A DNA stretch of 44,189 bases from the NCBI GenBank assembly GCA_016187395.1, contig JACPJV010000036.1, positions 1 through 44,189 of the forward strand, in the 5' to 3' direction. Numbering within the stretch: the first letter of the stretch is position 1; each line of letters opens with the position of its first letter. A program made the translations under genes and the position numbers. The stretch comes from Candidatus Aenigmatarchaeota archaeon (GTDB lineage: Archaea > Aenigmatarchaeota > Aenigmatarchaeia > GW2011-AR5 > JACRAC01). The notes under the pieces were generated by a model. It ran no database searches, was not told the origin of the DNA, and saw nothing but the letters and a program-made list of their open reading frames with translations. Shown here piece by piece: positions 3,240-11,791 of the stretch.

Positions 3240-4349
3240 ATGAATTCAAAGTTGGCTGCTGCTATTATTGTTATCATAATTGCTGTTGTGCTTGCCGTTG
3301 CAATTATAAACTTCGGCATAACCGGCTTTGCTTCAGGCGCCGCTGCCCCTGGCCAATCTTTATTCATGAACCAGAACGACCCTGCGGTTGCGCTGGCAAA
3401 GCAAGAGTTCAGGGAAGAATACTCCCCTGGTTGGGAAAACATGGAGCTTTACGAAAAGTACGTGGATATAATAGGTGCCAACGGAATCCTGGATGTTCTC
3501 GAAGAAAACTCCTGCCACAGCGAAGCGCACGACCTCGGGAAGATTATTTTTTCGCGCTCAGGCGACCTTGAGGAATCCATCACCATATGCGGCGACCGCT
3601 GTACGTCAGCCTGCCTGCACGGTGTCCTGATGGAGATGCTGGAAGGGAATATTACGCAGCATCCCGGCGACCCTGAAGGGCACGCGCGCCTGTCTGACAT
3701 AGAAAAGGAAATTAACAGCATCTGCAATAAGGAAGAAATTACATCCGTTCATAGTGAAGGCACATGCATCCATGGCCTGGGCCATGCAATCATGCACCTG
3801 TCAGGCTATGATATTAATGAGTCGCTGCGTGTCTGCGATACGCTGGAAGAAAAGCCCCAGAGCTATTACTGCGCAACAGGCGCATTCATGGAATATCATA
3901 TTGTCTACGGTGAAAGAGACCTGCAAAATGAAGGATTGCGCTATCCCTGCGATGCTTTTAAGCAGTATCCTGCCGCCTGCTACAGGTACAAGATGCAGTA
4001 TTCAATGCCAAAGATGCTTGCAGAAGGCATGAGTGTTGAAGATATATCAGGCGAATGCATGAAGCTTGAAAAGCTGGAAAGGCTCGGCTGCTTTCACGGA
4101 ATAGGCTTCTTCTTCCTTCCGCACATTGAGGAATCGCCTGCGAGGATTTCTGAAATTTGCATTTTCGGAAATTCCGACGACCGGCGCATGTGCATCGAGG
4201 GCGCTGTCGAGAAGCTGGCGGATTATAATCAGGAAAAAGCATTTGAAGCCTGCAGTCATCTGGATGGGGCAGACAGGGAAATCTGCACAGAAGCTGCGTC
4301 CGGAAAAATGTACAGGATGGACAAGGACTTCTCGCTTTACTTTGGGTGA
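3240..4349 (+). CDS. membrane-anchored/secreted Cys-His-rich protein
   Basis: 369 aa ORF with N-terminal TM and recurring CHSEAHDLG, CLHG, CIHGLGH, CATGAFMEYH, CFHGIGF motifs. Confidence 0.85.
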   Translation: MNSKLAAAIIVIIIAVVLAVAIINFGITGFASGAAAPGQSLFMNQNDPAVALAKQEFREEYSPGWENMELYEKYVDIIGANGILDVLEENSCHSEAHDLGKIIFSRSGDLEESITICGDRCTSACLHGVLMEMLEGNITQHPGDPEGHARLSDIEKEINSICNKEEITSVHSEGTCIHGLGHAIMHLSGYDINESLRVCDTLEEKPQSYYCATGAFMEYHIVYGERDLQNEGLRYPCDAFKQYPAACYRYKMQYSMPKMLAEGMSVEDISGECMKLEKLERLGCFHGIGFFFLPHIEESPARISEICIFGNSDDRRMCIEGAVEKLADYNQEKAFEACSHLDGADREICTEAASGKMYRMDKDFSLYFG

Positions 4350-4777: not shown

Positions 4778-5425
4778 CTATATTTTCACTGATATGTTCC
4801 CCAGCGCTTTCTGGCAAGCTGCATTCCATAGCAGCGAGAATAAAATTGCAGGGCTTTCTATCGTGTAGTGGGTTCTAAGATATTCAATCCATTTCTTTAG
4901 GGCATTCTCCGACCTCGACAGGGATAATCCCACGTTCTGCCCCTTTAATAGCGAAAGAGGGATTGAATTAGAAACTTCCAGGCAGGGCCTCGCGATTTCA
5001 TCTTTTTGTGGAGTTGAAACTCTGTTCTTATCAAAGGGAAAAACAAACCCTTTTGTATATCCAATGTAACTTGCTGCTCCCTTTTCAACTGCCCTTTCAC
5101 CCAATATTGCAGCAGAATCACAAGCCCTGGCAAAGACGATCGCATCTGATAGAATGTCTTCGTTAGTCCCGGCCTCTATCAATAGATTATCATCCTGACC
5201 AGCGACCGTACTTTGATTTCCATGACCGTTCAGAACAATAAAATTCGGGGGATTCTTTCGAACATAACTTTCAAAATCTTTCTTATTGGCTTTATTACGG
5301 TTCAGATCTATGCATTTCATGCCCCTTTCTCCAGCTTCATTCAGAATTGGTTCGCTCCATCTTGACAAATAAGTTGTGGTATCATCATATTCCGGCCGCG
5401 TTACTATAATTGTCTTATCACTCAC
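4778..5425 (-). CDS. CHAT/caspase-like cysteine peptidase
   Basis: 215 aa; FIVLNGHG (His68) followed by IVFARACDSA (Cys102), the clan CD His/Cys dyad pattern; last gene of a 3-gene operon. Confidence 0.75.
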   Translation of the reverse strand: MSDKTIIVTRPEYDDTTTYLSRWSEPILNEAGERGMKCIDLNRNKANKKDFESYVRKNPPNFIVLNGHGNQSTVAGQDDNLLIEAGTNEDILSDAIVFARACDSAAILGERAVEKGAASYIGYTKGFVFPFDKNRVSTPQKDEIARPCLEVSNSIPLSLLKGQNVGLSLSRSENALKKWIEYLRTHYTIESPAILFSLLWNAACQKALGNISVKI

Positions 5426-5636
5426 TTATCTCTACCTCTTTTTTGAATGTCCGGATACCTGACATCATAACTTCTACTATCAGTTGGCCAACCTCGTCAT
5501 CTTTCCTGATATGCTCAATTAACTCCCATTTATCGAAAGAGCCATGGCTACCGATTGAAAGCTTTATATGTTCGGGCATCCCTTCAAGCCTCGCAATTGC
5601 GATTTTCTTTTCATCCTCGCTAGCCATACATGCCAC
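5418..5636 (-). CDS. small protein associated with CHAT-like peptidase (A)
   Basis: 72 aa; overlaps the peptidase start by 8 bp; motif W-ELIEHIRKDDEVGQ. Confidence 0.7.
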   Translation of the reverse strand: MACMASEDEKKIAIARLEGMPEHIKLSIGSHGSFDKWELIEHIRKDDEVGQLIVEVMMSGIRTFKKEVEISE

Positions 5637-5639
5637 CGT

Positions 5640-5831
5640 TCAAATTATTTCCAACTTGATGAGTTTTTGAGATATTTTCTGCCCAAGCTCTGTTTTATTT
5701 CTGATTTCTAGATACGCCATATTCCATGATATCGGCTGTTCGTCTATAACCGCAATAACCTGGTTTCTTTCCTCTATAGGCAGATTAGCATAAACTTTCA
5801 TAAATCTTTCCAAGGCATCTCCTAGAGGCAT
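5640..5831 (-). CDS. small protein associated with CHAT-like peptidase (B)
   Basis: 63 aa; 3 bp gap to protein A; motif W-NMAYLEIRNKTELGQ, similar to protein A. Confidence 0.65.
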   Translation of the reverse strand: MPLGDALERFMKVYANLPIEERNQVIAVIDEQPISWNMAYLEIRNKTELGQKISQKLIKLEII

Positions 5832-5892
5832 GTCTATATCTCAATTGGCCTGCTTATATTCTTTGTTTAATTTCTACCAACAGAGAGACTTT

Positions 5893-8800
5893 TTAACCTT
5901 GCTGTCTTTCCCTTCTCAGCTTTCTTCTGTTCCTTGATCTGATCCTTCGTATCTCGTAGACAAGCCCTGCTGCAAAAAGCAGCACTATCCCGAGTGCTCT
6001 GGAATTTGCCGTCAAGAATCCTATGACGTTTACTGCCGGAGCGCTGACCACACCGTCAGCAACCTCTGTCCTTGTCCTGGGATTCTCATTCCTTCCCTCC
6101 GCAGCAGGCGTCTCTGCTTCAGCTGTTATTGTTTGCCTTATGTTCTCTTCTTGTTGCTGTTCTTGATTTTCAGGAGGTGTTGGATTGTTAAGGGAAGTCT
6201 TGTTCACAGGCTTGGGCGGTAATGAAAATCCGCCCCCTCCCCCGCCTCCTCCGTTGCTTCCGCTGTTTGATGCAGGCGGCGCGCAGTTTACAGTCGTGAG
6301 CGAGGATACGTCAGAAACGGCCGTGCTGTTTACGGTAAAGTTCGTGTCACCGCTTTTTTGTGCATTAGCGTTCATGGAAAAAGAGCCGTCATTTTCCGTG
6401 ATCACAGCGCCTGAAATAATTCCTGCATACGTGATGGTTTTGTTTGCAATCACGCTGCCGTTATTCCACGTGAGATTGCCTCCTATTGTGTAACTGCCTC
6501 CTGAACAAACGCCTGTGTGATCAGTAACTATTAGCAGCGCAACTCCCGTTGATGTGCTTCCGTTTGTACTCACGGCATTTCCCGCCTCGTCTTCTGCAGT
6601 GACGGTATAAGTGTAATTCTCCGGGGTTTTCGGCGCAGCCCACGTGCCTGCAAAGGATGTCCGCGATGAGTTTATCAAAGTAATGTTTTCAGTGAAATTT
6701 TGATAAAATACTGTTGCGGTTACATTCAGCTCGCTGCTGTCCTCGGCTTCTGCTTTTATCTCGAAAATCTGGCCGTTCATCCCTTCCTTTGGATTCGCTG
6801 TTGTGCTGGTTATATTCGGAGCAAACTTGTCTATGGATATTTCATAGATAGGACCTTCCGTCACCCTGCCAAGCCTGTCTTTTATCAGGAAGTAATATCT
6901 TACCCTTGTGCCGTTTTCATAATGCTCCAGTTCTTGGTTAAGATTTATACTGCTCTGGCAGTACATGTAAGTGCCGTTAATGCAGCTCACGTTCTTTTCC
7001 GTGAATCCTGCTGTTCCATTTTCCTTCCAGTAGAACCTGCTTTCGTTGACCCAAAGCTCCGTATAGTTCATCCCGAACTTCCTGTTGCCTCCTGCAAAGG
7101 CCGTGTCATTCGCATAATTATAGCTGTTGATCACTGGTGCTGATGTGTCTACTGTTAATAATGTTGTCTTCATCCCGGTGTTCCCTGCACGGTCTTTTGC
7201 CCGAAATGTCATTGAATAAATGCCGTCTGGCATGCCAAGAGTGCCGCTGTAATTGTCGCAATTGCTGCAGAGTGTGCTTTCATTATGCGCGCTGTAATTG
7301 AGTAACGTGACGTTTTCGGATAATTCTATATCCAGAGGCACCTGCGAAATTGTGAAATAGTCACTATCCGGATTTATCACTGTTATTTGTGGAATTACTG
7401 TGTCTATCTTTACTGTTCTTGCTTCGCTCACGTTTGTCCTGTTCGCAAAATCAGCGGCATAAATTTTGTAGTAGTGTTCGCCGTCTGCCTGCCCCTGCAT
7501 AGTCCTGTGCCATTGCGTTCCAGAGCCGTTCATCGTATAGTTTGCAGAATCCCATTCTATTTTTGCGCTGCTCAGGCTTTCGCTCGATGTGATGTTTATG
7601 ACTACGCTGCTTCCGTTCACATAAGAGTCATTTGGAGGAGTCGGGCTTGCAAAGCTTATTCCTGGCTGCATTGTGTCTACTATTGTATTTGCATTTTCAC
7701 TTGCGCTTTCAAAAAATTCTCCGTAGCTTGTTGAGTTTGAAATTGCAAAAAAGGAATAATTTCCATCCTCCTCTGCTTCAACCTCCCACGTGACATTCAT
7801 CTTTGTGTTGTTTTCTATCGACCCTAAACTTCTGGGATTGTCTCCTGAAAGTATGGATGTTTTGAGAGGAAGAACAAGAAACGCCTGCACGCCGTGCGCA
7901 TGCAAATCCCCGCTGTTTTCTGTCTGCGAAGTCACATTGAATCTCCTTCCTGCTATCGCAGGCGTGCCTATAGTTGTTTTCAGAATGATGTTTGCTTCTG
8001 CATAGCCTCCGTCTGTTGCCAAAGCGAAATTTTCAATATCCGAACCGTGCGAGAAATTTGCGGGTTTCGCCTTTATCTTAAGGACCGCTCTGTCGTATGC
8101 GATATCCGCTTTAACCTGCTCTGCGTTGTCCATGCTGCTCTCAGATGAGTTTATTGCTGAGTTGCTGGTTTCATTATAAAGATGCAGATCAAGGTTGTTC
8201 AGAGAATACCACGCATTTGGATAGTCGATTCCGTTGTATGTCGCGTGCCTGTTCCACGCAAGCGTTGCACGCTCGCCCGGCAATAGCAAGGCTTTGTACA
8301 GCCTGAAAGATCCTTCTGTTATGTTTGAAATTAGCACATCGTCCTTGAATGAATAAGCCCTGTCAAGATCCAGATAGCCAAATCCGTATGCAGTTTTATC
8401 ACCGGTGCTGTTTGCAGTATTGAATAATAGCGCGCGCACAGCCATTGGATTCCAGTTTATGCCCTTGTAGTCTAGGATTAGCGCAATTGCTCCGGCCACG
8501 TGCGGCGCAGCCATGCTTGTCCCTGACTTATCCACAAACTGGGATCCGCCCTCCCAGTTGCTGTTGGCGGACTTTATTGTGACGCCGGGAGCTGCTATAT
8601 CAGGCTTTATCCTGCCGTCAGAGGTCAGCCCTCTGCTGCTGAATCCCGCGATAGAATCGTCGCCTGTGCTCACCGTACCTGCGTCATCTACGGCTGCAAC
8701 ACTGAATGCATTGTACGCAACAGCTCCAACAGTGCTCGCACCCGGACCGCCGTTTCCTGCAGAATTTGCCACGTGAACTCCCAGTTCATCCACAACAGCA

Positions 8801-9834
8801 TCCAGATATCTTGCAAGGTCGCAGTCGCTCTCACCCACAGAGCACATGCTTATGCTCCTGCTGATTATGTCAGCGCCCTGTTCCACTGCCCAGTCTATTC
8901 CTTTTCTGTTATCGCCTTCGTAGCAAAGACCGCTGCCTGCGTCATCTCTGAAGCACACCTTGGCGTTGATTATATTCGCGCCAAAGGCAATGCCCTTGTA
9001 TGTGCCGTCTCTGCTTGCAGCAATGCCTGCGACATGCGTGCCATGGCCGTGCAGGTCGTCTGTGCTGTTAGGATCGTCATTATAAGACGGATCGCCCTGC
9101 GCATCATCGTGGAATGTTTTTGATATATTTACGCTGTTGTTCAGTGCCGGATGTTTTTCATCCAGGCCTGTATCTGTGATCGCAACCTCAAACCCGCTGC
9201 CATTGATGCTTGCATTCCAAAAAACGTCTGATTTTATTGAATAGCTTCCTACGTCAAGGTCTAATTGCATTTTTTTATTTTCTATAATAGCAAGTACATC
9301 TTCATGGTTTTGCAGGTCGTTAAGGCAGGGCTGGGGCAGCAGCGCTGTCACGGAATTTATTATGGCAGTTGAACCCGTATACTTCCCACCGCATCTCTCT
9401 ATTATATTTCTTATTTCATCATGGCTGCTGCTTGTCTTTGCATTCACTTCTTCTATTATCCGCCTTCTCGCCTCGTCCTTTAGTGAATCTATTTCACTTC
9501 CTATCTCACCGAGTATTCTTCTATCTTTCTTAGTCAGAAATCTTTCTTCGTATTGCCTTACTTCTTGCAGGCTTTTTCCTCTCCTCTCCTTCTTTGAAAG
9601 AGGCTCTATCTTTGCATATATGCCCTTTGCCTCGGAAACTTCGGCCTCTATTCTTCCCCCGATCTCTGCGTTCACCTGAGCGCCCACCTCCCCCAGGGGC
9701 TGGTCTTTGAGTATTATAATCACGGGCATTGTGCCTTCGTTATCAGCCTCTGCCGTACCTGCCACAGAGGCAAGAGTAAGTGAAGCCAGAAAAAGAGCCA
9801 GAATGCTGCAGATACGCATGTATTTGCCTTTCAT
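5893..9834 (-). CDS. subtilisin-like S8 serine protease with Ig-like repeats and C-terminal TM anchor
   Basis: 1313 aa; signal peptide; catalytic motifs VAITDTGLD, GHGTHVAGI, GTSMAAPHVAGA; C-terminal hydrophobic helix plus basic tail. Confidence 0.95.
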   Translation of the reverse strand: MKGKYMRICSILALFLASLTLASVAGTAEADNEGTMPVIIILKDQPLGEVGAQVNAEIGGRIEAEVSEAKGIYAKIEPLSKKERRGKSLQEVRQYEERFLTKKDRRILGEIGSEIDSLKDEARRRIIEEVNAKTSSSHDEIRNIIERCGGKYTGSTAIINSVTALLPQPCLNDLQNHEDVLAIIENKKMQLDLDVGSYSIKSDVFWNASINGSGFEVAITDTGLDEKHPALNNSVNISKTFHDDAQGDPSYNDDPNSTDDLHGHGTHVAGIAASRDGTYKGIAFGANIINAKVCFRDDAGSGLCYEGDNRKGIDWAVEQGADIISRSISMCSVGESDCDLARYLDAVVDELGVHVANSAGNGGPGASTVGAVAYNAFSVAAVDDAGTVSTGDDSIAGFSSRGLTSDGRIKPDIAAPGVTIKSANSNWEGGSQFVDKSGTSMAAPHVAGAIALILDYKGINWNPMAVRALLFNTANSTGDKTAYGFGYLDLDRAYSFKDDVLISNITEGSFRLYKALLLPGERATLAWNRHATYNGIDYPNAWYSLNNLDLHLYNETSNSAINSSESSMDNAEQVKADIAYDRAVLKIKAKPANFSHGSDIENFALATDGGYAEANIILKTTIGTPAIAGRRFNVTSQTENSGDLHAHGVQAFLVLPLKTSILSGDNPRSLGSIENNTKMNVTWEVEAEEDGNYSFFAISNSTSYGEFFESASENANTIVDTMQPGISFASPTPPNDSYVNGSSVVINITSSESLSSAKIEWDSANYTMNGSGTQWHRTMQGQADGEHYYKIYAADFANRTNVSEARTVKIDTVIPQITVINPDSDYFTISQVPLDIELSENVTLLNYSAHNESTLCSNCDNYSGTLGMPDGIYSMTFRAKDRAGNTGMKTTLLTVDTSAPVINSYNYANDTAFAGGNRKFGMNYTELWVNESRFYWKENGTAGFTEKNVSCINGTYMYCQSSINLNQELEHYENGTRVRYYFLIKDRLGRVTEGPIYEISIDKFAPNITSTTANPKEGMNGQIFEIKAEAEDSSELNVTATVFYQNFTENITLINSSRTSFAGTWAAPKTPENYTYTVTAEDEAGNAVSTNGSTSTGVALLIVTDHTGVCSGGSYTIGGNLTWNNGSVIANKTITYAGIISGAVITENDGSFSMNANAQKSGDTNFTVNSTAVSDVSSLTTVNCAPPASNSGSNGGGGGGGGFSLPPKPVNKTSLNNPTPPENQEQQQEENIRQTITAEAETPAAEGRNENPRTRTEVADGVVSAPAVNVIGFLTANSRALGIVLLFAAGLVYEIRRIRSRNRRKLRRERQQG

Positions 9835-9892: not shown

Positions 9893-10303
9893 TTATTTCA
9901 GTTCTTCCAAGAATTCCCTTGCCGTAACTATCCTTATTCCCCTGAATTCTTTCAGCTTCAGAAGATGCGGGTCTCCGGAAATGATGTAATCAGCGCCTCC
10001 TGCCACTGCTGACTCCAGAATCCTGTTGTCATCAGGGTCTTCCTTGATAACATCAATACTTTCTGATAGACTGACAAACATTGCCATCTCCAGAATCAGT
10101 GTCTTGAATCTGCTTTTCTGCTCTTCTGTGAACTGAAACTTGGGGTAGTCTAATACCCTTGAGAGTTCATTGAATTGCTCTTTGGAAATGACCAGCTCGC
10201 AATCTCCGCTGATTATTTTTCGCACCACCTGCCTTGGATTTCCTTCCCATCCCAGCGCAGAAATCAATATGTTGGTGTCTAGCGTTGCCCTCGTCTTGCC
10301 CAT
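9893..10303 (-). CDS. PIN-domain toxin (VapC-like)
   Basis: TLDTNILISALGW...ILESAVAGGADYIISGDPHLL, PIN acidic motifs. Confidence 0.88.
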   Translation of the reverse strand: MGKTRATLDTNILISALGWEGNPRQVVRKIISGDCELVISKEQFNELSRVLDYPKFQFTEEQKSRFKTLILEMAMFVSLSESIDVIKEDPDDNRILESAVAGGADYIISGDPHLLKLKEFRGIRIVTAREFLEELK

Positions 10304-11202: not shown

Positions 11203-11406
11203 ATGAAAATGAAAACACTTGTGAGGACCAGGGCACTTGGAGGCTCCCTTGTGGTCACCGTGCCGAAAGAAATTGTAAAGGAAGAAGGTATTAGGCCGGG
11301 CGAGCTTGTTGAGATAGAAGTGGAAAAAGTTAGGAAATCGTTTTTTGGCGCAGCAAAAGGCGTAGGACCTTTCACGGAAGAAGATGAGATGAAAGCCCAT
11401 GACTGA
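11203..11406 (+). CDS. AbrB/SpoVT-type antitoxin (VapB)
   Basis: MKTLVRTRALGGSLVVTVPKEIVKEEGIRPGELVEIEVEK; TTTAAATA box upstream. Confidence 0.88.
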   Translation: MKMKTLVRTRALGGSLVVTVPKEIVKEEGIRPGELVEIEVEKVRKSFFGAAKGVGPFTEEDEMKAHD

Positions 11407-11791
11407 TTACATAGTTGATGCCTGGGCATGGATAGAATATTTTGACGGCAGCAGGGCGGGCAATAAAATCAGGGATTACATAGAAAGCGGTAGGAACGCC
11501 ATTTTCATATCCTCTGTAACGTTCGCAGAAGTAATAAGCAAATTCCTGAGGACAGGAAGAGATGCTGATGTTGCAATTGAAGGAATCCGCGCCCTGTCCA
11601 GAATTATAAATGCAGACGAAGAACTGGCAGCCTCGGCAGGAAGGCTTCACGCGGGAAACAGAAACAACATCAAAAATTTCGGGCTTGCGGACGCCTTTGT
11701 TCTTGCATCAGCGAGAAAAACAGGCTGCAGGATTCTTACAGGAGATCCGCATTTCGAAGGCTTCAAAGAAGCTGTCATGATAACACGGTAG
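11399..11791 (+). CDS. PIN-domain toxin (VapC)
   Basis: MTDYIVDAWAWIEYFDGS...GLADAFVLASARKTGCRILTGDPHF; overlaps antitoxin by 8 bp. Confidence 0.9.
   Translation: MTDYIVDAWAWIEYFDGSRAGNKIRDYIESGRNAIFISSVTFAEVISKFLRTGRDADVAIEGIRALSRIINADEELAASAGRLHAGNRNNIKNFGLADAFVLASARKTGCRILTGDPHFEGFKEAVMITR

What the first reader, a model, noticed from the sequence alone, without database searches (positions are those of the whole stretch)
4778..5831. Compact three-gene CHAT/caspase-like protease system with two related small proteins
Seen: three tightly packed minus-strand genes (63 aa, then 72 aa, then 215 aa; 3-bp gap and 8-bp overlap). The 215-aa protein has the clan CD His/Cys dyad pattern (LNGHG, His68; FARACDSA, Cys102). 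The two small proteins share W-x(5,6)-IR[KN]xxxE[VL]GQ, so they may be paralogous partners, adaptors or substrates. Known: CHAT/caspase-like proteases are effectors in several bacterial immune or cell-death systems with small companions. Inference: this may be an undescribed archaeal protease module, for stress or defence, in which one small protein restrains or is cleaved by the protease.
Basis: partly seen in the sequence, partly recalled or inferred. Interest (0 to 1): 0.86.

Follow-up and report, generated by a model that had tools for sequence, protein, structure and literature searches.

The report
Archaeal caspase-like protease with two partners
Small-genome archaea carry a portable, undescribed three-gene kit made of a caspase-like protease and two related small proteins that nearly always travel with it; it looks like a self-contained switch for cell shutdown, probably for defence, though nothing has yet been tested at the bench.

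Summary
In detail: three tight minus-strand genes, A (63 aa), B (72 aa) and C (215 aa), at the stated coordinates. C folds confidently as a caspase/CHAT-type (clan CD) protease (pLDDT 95; best PDB match SAVED-CHAT). Its His68 and Cys102 are invariant in all 33 open-frame relatives. No Pfam, NCBIfam, PADLOC or PDB sequence family claims A, B or C. The trio is a real module: of 40 C loci found in archaeal genomes, 36 have A then B directly upstream. The four exceptions are a decayed copy at a contig end, a contig-cut copy that keeps B, a decayed fragment and one distant relative. A and B are weakly but plausibly homologous and share a topology. The module is patchy, under strong purifying selection (dN/dS 0.04-0.07 in one close pair), has moved between archaeal phyla, and sits near AbiE toxin-antitoxin genes about 15 times more often than expected. 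Decay is one-sided: C breaks or vanishes while A or B persists. Best explanation: a toxin-antitoxin-like or abortive-infection module in which A and B hold the protease in check. Module and fold are shown computationally; toxicity, inhibition, substrate and trigger are inferred. Novelty: new variant of a known kind (CHAT effectors).

The parts
5640..5831 (-). Gene A: 63-aa small protein; predicted helix / beta-hairpin / two helices; W36 invariant, P18, R22, A39, E42 nearly so
   Evidence: relatives in 19 of 156 genomes of the phylum
5418..5636 (-). Gene B: 72-aa small protein, same predicted topology as A; R16, G29, G50 invariant
4778..5425 (-). Gene C: 215-aa caspase/CHAT-fold cysteine protease, one domain, no N-terminal export signal apparent by eye
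5222..5224 (-). Codon of catalytic His68 of C
   Evidence: invariant in 33 of 33 open-frame relatives
5120..5122 (-). Codon of catalytic Cys102 of C
   Evidence: invariant in 33 of 33
5000..5002 (-). Codon of near-invariant Asp142 of C; candidate substrate-pocket acid (inference)
   Evidence: 32 of 33; pocket role not tested
5853..5860 (-). TATA-like box (aatataag) about 25 nt before the A start, candidate promoter of the operon with a nearly leaderless mRNA
   Evidence: TTTAAA/TTATATA-like boxes at a similar place in many relatives; consensus match only

Best explanation
A, B and C are one mobile, self-contained module. C is a cytoplasmic cysteine protease of the caspase/CHAT fold. A and B are two small sister proteins, encoded first and in overlapping or touching frames, that most likely bind C and keep it inactive. 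When the A/B hold is lost (virus takeover, host shut-off or stress), C cuts one or more cell proteins and stops growth or kills the cell. It would thus work like a toxin-antitoxin or abortive-infection pair with a protease as toxin and two antitoxin/sensor proteins. Shown computationally: the fold, the conserved dyad, the near-obligatory A-B-C linkage, purifying selection, cross-phylum transfer, enrichment near AbiE genes, one-sided decay. Inferred: binding, inhibition, trigger, target, and the growth-arrest outcome.
For: Fold: AlphaFold pLDDT 95.1, pTM 0.92; top PDB matches SAVED-CHAT E 6e-7, then CED-3, caspase-11, TPR-CHAT, gingipain. Dyad 33/33. Linkage: 32 of 35 C loci plus 4 of 5 found later with the same profile. 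A-B junction is a 4-nt ATGA overlap in 13 of 29 loci; B-C overlaps or lies within 4 nt in 21 of 23. dN/dS 0.05/0.07/0.04 for A/B/C between two relatives at dS 0.8-0.9. A, B and C distances correlate (Mantel r 0.56-0.76, 0 of 5000 permutations). Cross-phylum sister groups with 97-100% bootstrap support. AbiEii within 3 kb of 6 of 34 modules against 0.40 expected; AbiEi/AbiEii PADLOC hits in 5 and 4 of 110 neighbour proteins, not among the listed families of 110 control proteins. One-sided decay: 6 loci with intact A and B but damaged C, 7 orphan A or B without C, no full-length module C with a damaged or missing A or B except one cut by a contig end. A virus contig encodes the second half of B.
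Against: No activity, toxicity or binding data. The tethered A-B prediction gave confident domains but pTM 0.58, so no A-B interface is shown; no A/B-C complex could be modelled. One distant relative of C (L134, 258 aa with a hydrophobic tail) has no A or B in the 540 nt upstream that are held. Decay counts come from metagenome-assembled genomes, where frameshifts can be errors, and C is the longest gene, so it is hit most often by chance (0.61^6 = 0.05 for the six single-gene cases). One orphan B pair has dN/dS 0.34, weaker constraint than in modules. AbiE proximity may mark variable islands rather than shared function.
Confidence: 0.5

Rival explanations
1. A and/or B are the substrates: C cuts one of them, releasing or destroying an active small protein, as CRISPR-linked proteases cut their anti-sigma partners. 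C would be a signal relay rather than a toxin.
For: Position 22 of A is Arg/Lys in nearly all relatives and lies next to a loop before the first strand; clan CD enzymes often cut after basic residues (general knowledge). Near-obligatory linkage fits a dedicated substrate. CalpL/CalpT/CalpS is a known precedent with another protease fold (PMC11417357).
Against: Both A and B are compact, confidently folded domains. No transcription factor or third output protein is shared by the neighbourhoods. Orphan B genes kept without C are not expected if B is only a substrate.
Confidence: 0.2
2. A and B are sensors or activators of C (adaptor-type defence): they detect an invader and assemble C into an active complex, and C alone is inert.
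For: Small dedicated partners next to an effector protease recall the effector-associated adaptors of conflict systems (PMC7159879). Defence-like genomic setting. A virus carries the second half of B, which could be a decoy.
Against: If C alone were inert, loss of A or B should be as common as loss of C; observed decay is one-sided. No recognised sensor domain or nucleotide-binding family in A or B.
Confidence: 0.2
3. A housekeeping regulatory protease of these archaea with two chaperone-like subunits, not a conflict module.
For: Strong purifying selection in one close pair; no CRISPR or phage genes fixed beside it.
Against: Only 18 of 156 genomes of the phylum have it, spread over 17 of 104 genera; the two other genomes of the family lack it. 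Cross-phylum transfer, up to three copies in one genome, frequent decay.
Confidence: 0.07

Closest known systems
SAVED-CHAT protease of type III CRISPR (PDB 8tl0)
   Same: Closest solved fold to C (Foldseek E 6e-7, TM about 0.55), His/Cys dyad in the same clan CD arrangement, companion genes
   Different: C has no SAVED domain (215 aa, one domain). No CRISPR gene was seen among the neighbours that were read. Companions A and B match nothing known.
TPR-CHAT / Csx29 of Craspase (PDB 7y84, 8d9g)
   Same: CHAT-type protease controlled by partner proteins; fold match E 2e-4
   Different: No TPR part, no Cas7-11 partner; partners are 60-80 aa proteins
Caspases and prokaryotic metacaspases/orthocaspases (C14)
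   Same: Caspase fold and dyad (CED-3 E 6e-5)
   Different: No Pfam C14 match. A 2012 survey found metacaspases in only 5 of 114 archaeal genomes, all Euryarchaeota (PMC3501461).
Gingipain family C25
   Same: Fold match (RgpB E 2.5e-4, TMq 0.63); one member of the C family reaches PF01364 at E 0.083
   Different: No propeptide or export signal apparent; sequence match not significant
AbiE and type II toxin-antitoxin modules
   Same: Compact operon, small partner genes first, overlapping genes, patchy and mobile, orphan partner genes, found side by side with AbiE
   Different: Effector is a predicted protease rather than a nucleotidyltransferase or RNase; two paralogous partners; neutralisation untested

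Membership tests
CHAT/caspase-like (clan CD) peptidases | Caspase-type alpha/beta fold | tested here: met
   pLDDT 95.1; 16 PDB matches at E <= 0.001, all SAVED-CHAT, caspase, TPR-CHAT or gingipain
CHAT/caspase-like (clan CD) peptidases | Catalytic His-Gly and Cys after successive strands | tested here: met
   H68-G69 and C102 invariant in 33 of 33; both directly follow strands in the model (E62-67, E96-101)
CHAT/caspase-like (clan CD) peptidases | Match to the existing Pfam families (CHAT, C14, C25) | tested here: not met
   0 Pfam hits up to E 10 for C; best in the family C25 at 0.083. It is a separate sequence family in the same fold.
CHAT/caspase-like (clan CD) peptidases | Peptidase activity | not testable with these tools
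   needs purified protein
Type III CRISPR CHAT effectors (SAVED-CHAT, Craspase) | Fused SAVED or TPR domain | tested here: not met
   single 215-aa domain, no family match
Type III CRISPR CHAT effectors (SAVED-CHAT, Craspase) | cas genes next to the protease | tested here: inconclusive
   no cas family among the 25 most frequent PADLOC or Pfam families of 110 neighbour proteins; families below that list were not shown
Toxin-antitoxin modules | Compact operon of effector and small partner(s) that occur together | tested here: met
   36 of 40 loci; overlaps. Transcription itself not tested.
Toxin-antitoxin modules | Patchy distribution and horizontal transfer | tested here: met
Toxin-antitoxin modules | Effector lost before protector in decaying copies | tested here: inconclusive
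   6 damaged C with intact A and B, 7 orphan A/B, no reverse case in the module family; numbers small, draft genomes
Toxin-antitoxin modules | Toxicity of the effector and its neutralisation | not testable with these tools
   needs expression assay
NTP-dependent conflict systems with caspase effectors (VMAP, EACC) | NTPase/MoxR/vWA core and effector-associated domains | tested here: not met
   no such shared neighbours; description from PMC7159879

The most novel reading that the evidence does not exclude
A toxin-antitoxin-like system with a caspase-fold protease as toxin and two paralogous small proteins as joint antitoxin/sensor, spread by transfer among several archaeal phyla, and countered by at least one virus that carries half of protein B as a substitute antitoxin or decoy.
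Probability: 0.3. Interest if true: 0.9.

Novelty: new variant of a known kind. Interest (0 to 1): 0.74.

Why it matters
Known defence systems are scarce in DPANN archaea: a 2026 survey of 7747 archaeal genomes reports that CRISPR and restriction are under-represented in DPANN while AbiE and other compact systems are enriched; it does not mention CHAT or caspase proteases (PMC12988326). A 1-kb module with a caspase-fold protease would be a compact candidate of the missing kind and would extend caspase-type effectors to small-genome archaea. It is small enough to synthesise and test directly, including which small protein controls the protease. If A/B restrain C, it would be a toxin-antitoxin architecture for which no earlier description was found here.

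Tried and rejected
Sequence-family searches of A, B and C (Pfam, NCBIfam, PADLOC, PDB by sequence and by profile): nothing significant; B against msDPBB_sym2 at E 0.0047 over 22 residues was treated as chance. Foldseek of the tethered A-B model against PDB and viral structures: nothing below E 0.1. Phages and plasmids by tblastn with C: none. Viral contigs with C and A queries: none. Conserved neighbour beyond A-B-C: none found. First joint alignment of A and B rows put B on top of A and was discarded; A6 was used. Gasdermin-type partners: no such neighbour seen.

Full report
OBSERVATION. The window carries three minus-strand genes exactly as described: A 5640-5831 (63 aa), B 5418-5636 (72 aa), C 4778-5425 (215 aa), with a 3-bp gap and an 8-bp overlap. 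The window lies in a 0.98-Mb, 42-contig draft genome with an archaeal SSU rRNA. The genome's phylum is not named by the tools; genome sizes around 1 Mb suggest DPANN (inference).

WHAT C IS. No Pfam, NCBIfam, PADLOC or PDB sequence match exists for any of the three. AlphaFold on a 17-sequence alignment gives C at pLDDT 95.1 and pTM 0.92. Foldseek against the PDB returns SAVED-CHAT (E 6e-7), CED-3, caspases, TPR-CHAT and gingipain, and nothing else at E <= 0.001. His68 and Cys102 are invariant in all 33 open-frame relatives, as is Gly122; Asp142 is kept in 32. One decayed copy (L076) has Tyr in place of the His. C is therefore a new sequence family with the caspase/CHAT fold; catalysis is inferred, not shown.

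THE MODULE. Searching the phylum with C found relatives in 18 of 156 genomes, in 17 of 104 genera. A wider archaeal sample gave 28 of 392 genomes, 10 of them outside the phylum. Four further phylum scans added five loci. In 32 of the first 35 C loci A and B lie directly upstream in the same order; the exceptions are a decayed copy at a contig start (L019), a copy cut by the contig end that still has B (L078), and a lone C fragment (L081). Of the five later loci, none of which was used to build the A and B profiles, four have A and B; the fifth, L134, is a distant C relative with a C-terminal hydrophobic extension and no A or B in the 540 nt held upstream. Searches with A and B themselves find few copies away from C: B alone in six places, A alone in one. 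A-B junctions overlap by ATGA in 13 of 29 loci, and most B-C junctions overlap or nearly touch. A TATA-like box sits about 25 nt before the A start in the window and at similar places in many relatives (a consensus match only).

A AND B. The two families align with each other over 47 columns (hhalign E 1.7e-4, probability 49%). To look at both together, the in-frame stop between them was read as Trp, a computational tether and not a biological claim. AlphaFold gave the same topology for each: helix, beta-hairpin, helix, helix (mean pLDDT 89.8). pTM was 0.58, so nothing is claimed about an A-B interface. No solved or viral structure resembles the pair. Common ancestry of A and B is likely but not proven.

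EVOLUTION. Between two relatives of one genus all three genes show strong purifying selection (dN/dS 0.05, 0.07 and 0.04 at dS 0.8-0.9). Pairwise distances of A, B and C correlate across 25 loci (r 0.56-0.76, no permutation of 5000 reaching them), so the genes travel together. The C tree mixes phyla with strong support: G068 with G302, G092 with G302/G355, G006 with G338/G166/G188. Some genomes carry two or three copies. This is the pattern of a horizontally moving module.

SETTING. No neighbour is shared beyond A-B-C. AbiEii genes lie within 3 kb of 6 of 34 modules against 0.40 expected from their density in the same genomes (Poisson P 4e-6; genome sizes rounded). Among 110 neighbour proteins PADLOC finds AbiEi in 5 and AbiEii in 4; they are absent from the listed families of 110 control proteins. 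In the window itself two PIN-domain genes, one with a MazE-type partner, lie 4-6 kb away. This suggests a variable island with toxin-antitoxin genes.

DECAY. Six loci have intact A and B with a damaged C (L010, L012, L018, L025, L073, L089). Seven places keep A or B without C. No full-length module C lacks an intact A or B, apart from the one cut by a contig end. L134 is the only full-length C relative without them, and it lies outside the close family. One-sided decay is what a toxin and its protectors would give, but counts are small, genomes are drafts, and C is the largest target.

VIRUS. One 21.9-kb contig, present both in an archaeal draft genome and in IMG/VR (UViG_3300014886_000074), has terminase and portal genes and a 46-aa ORF that is the second half of B (62% identity over 35 residues to the B of L025). 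It may be a remnant, a decoy or a replacement antitoxin.

INTERPRETATION. The most economical mechanism is a protease effector kept off by two small sister proteins, released under attack or stress, stopping the cell. Steps shown: module, fold, dyad, linkage, selection, transfer. Steps inferred: inhibition, trigger, target, outcome. Rivals are A/B as substrates, A/B as activating sensors, and a housekeeping role. The literature searched describes CHAT or caspase-like effectors in CRISPR and NTPase-centred systems (PMC11417357, PMC7159879) and metacaspases in a few Euryarchaeota (PMC3501461). A 2026 archaeal defence survey mentions neither CHAT nor caspase (PMC12988326). The searched library lacks most subscription journals and preprints, so absence of a description is not proof of novelty, and bacteria were not searched systematically.

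Noticed in passing
L053:3427-3564 (-), same contig as L126 (IMGVR_UViG_3300014886_000074): A virus contig with terminase and portal genes encodes a 46-aa ORF matching only the second half of protein B, overlapping the end of an upstream gene; possible decoy or substitute antitoxin.
   Followed up: partly
window 9893-10303 (-) and 11203-11791 (+): Two PIN-domain toxin-like genes, the second with a MazE/AbrB-type antitoxin gene, 4-6 kb from the module.
   Followed up: partly
window 5893-9834 (-): 1313-aa subtilase with Ig-like repeats directly upstream of the module on the same strand, 61 bp from gene A.
   Followed up: partly
G000:C29:6945-9916 (L127): The SSU rRNA match spans 2972 bases for a 1478-position model, so the gene probably holds about 1.5 kb of intron-like insertion.
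   Followed up: no
L134:541-1314 (+): Distant relative of C, 258 aa, keeping His and Cys, with a C-terminal hydrophobic/amphipathic extension and no A or B detected; may be a membrane-attached outgroup of the family.
   Followed up: partly
G119:C7 (L055, L056): One genome carries three different A-B-C modules on one contig within 60 kb, belonging to different branches of the C tree.
   Followed up: partly
L049:4014-4205 and L052:4267-4458: Orphan B genes in two genomes of one genus beside an HsdM-like gene (by eye), dN/dS 0.34: kept without C.
   Followed up: partly
window 3240-4349 (+): 369-aa predicted protein with repeated Cys/His-containing CxHG...GHA-like motifs and an N-terminal hydrophobic stretch, no Pfam family.
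   Followed up: no
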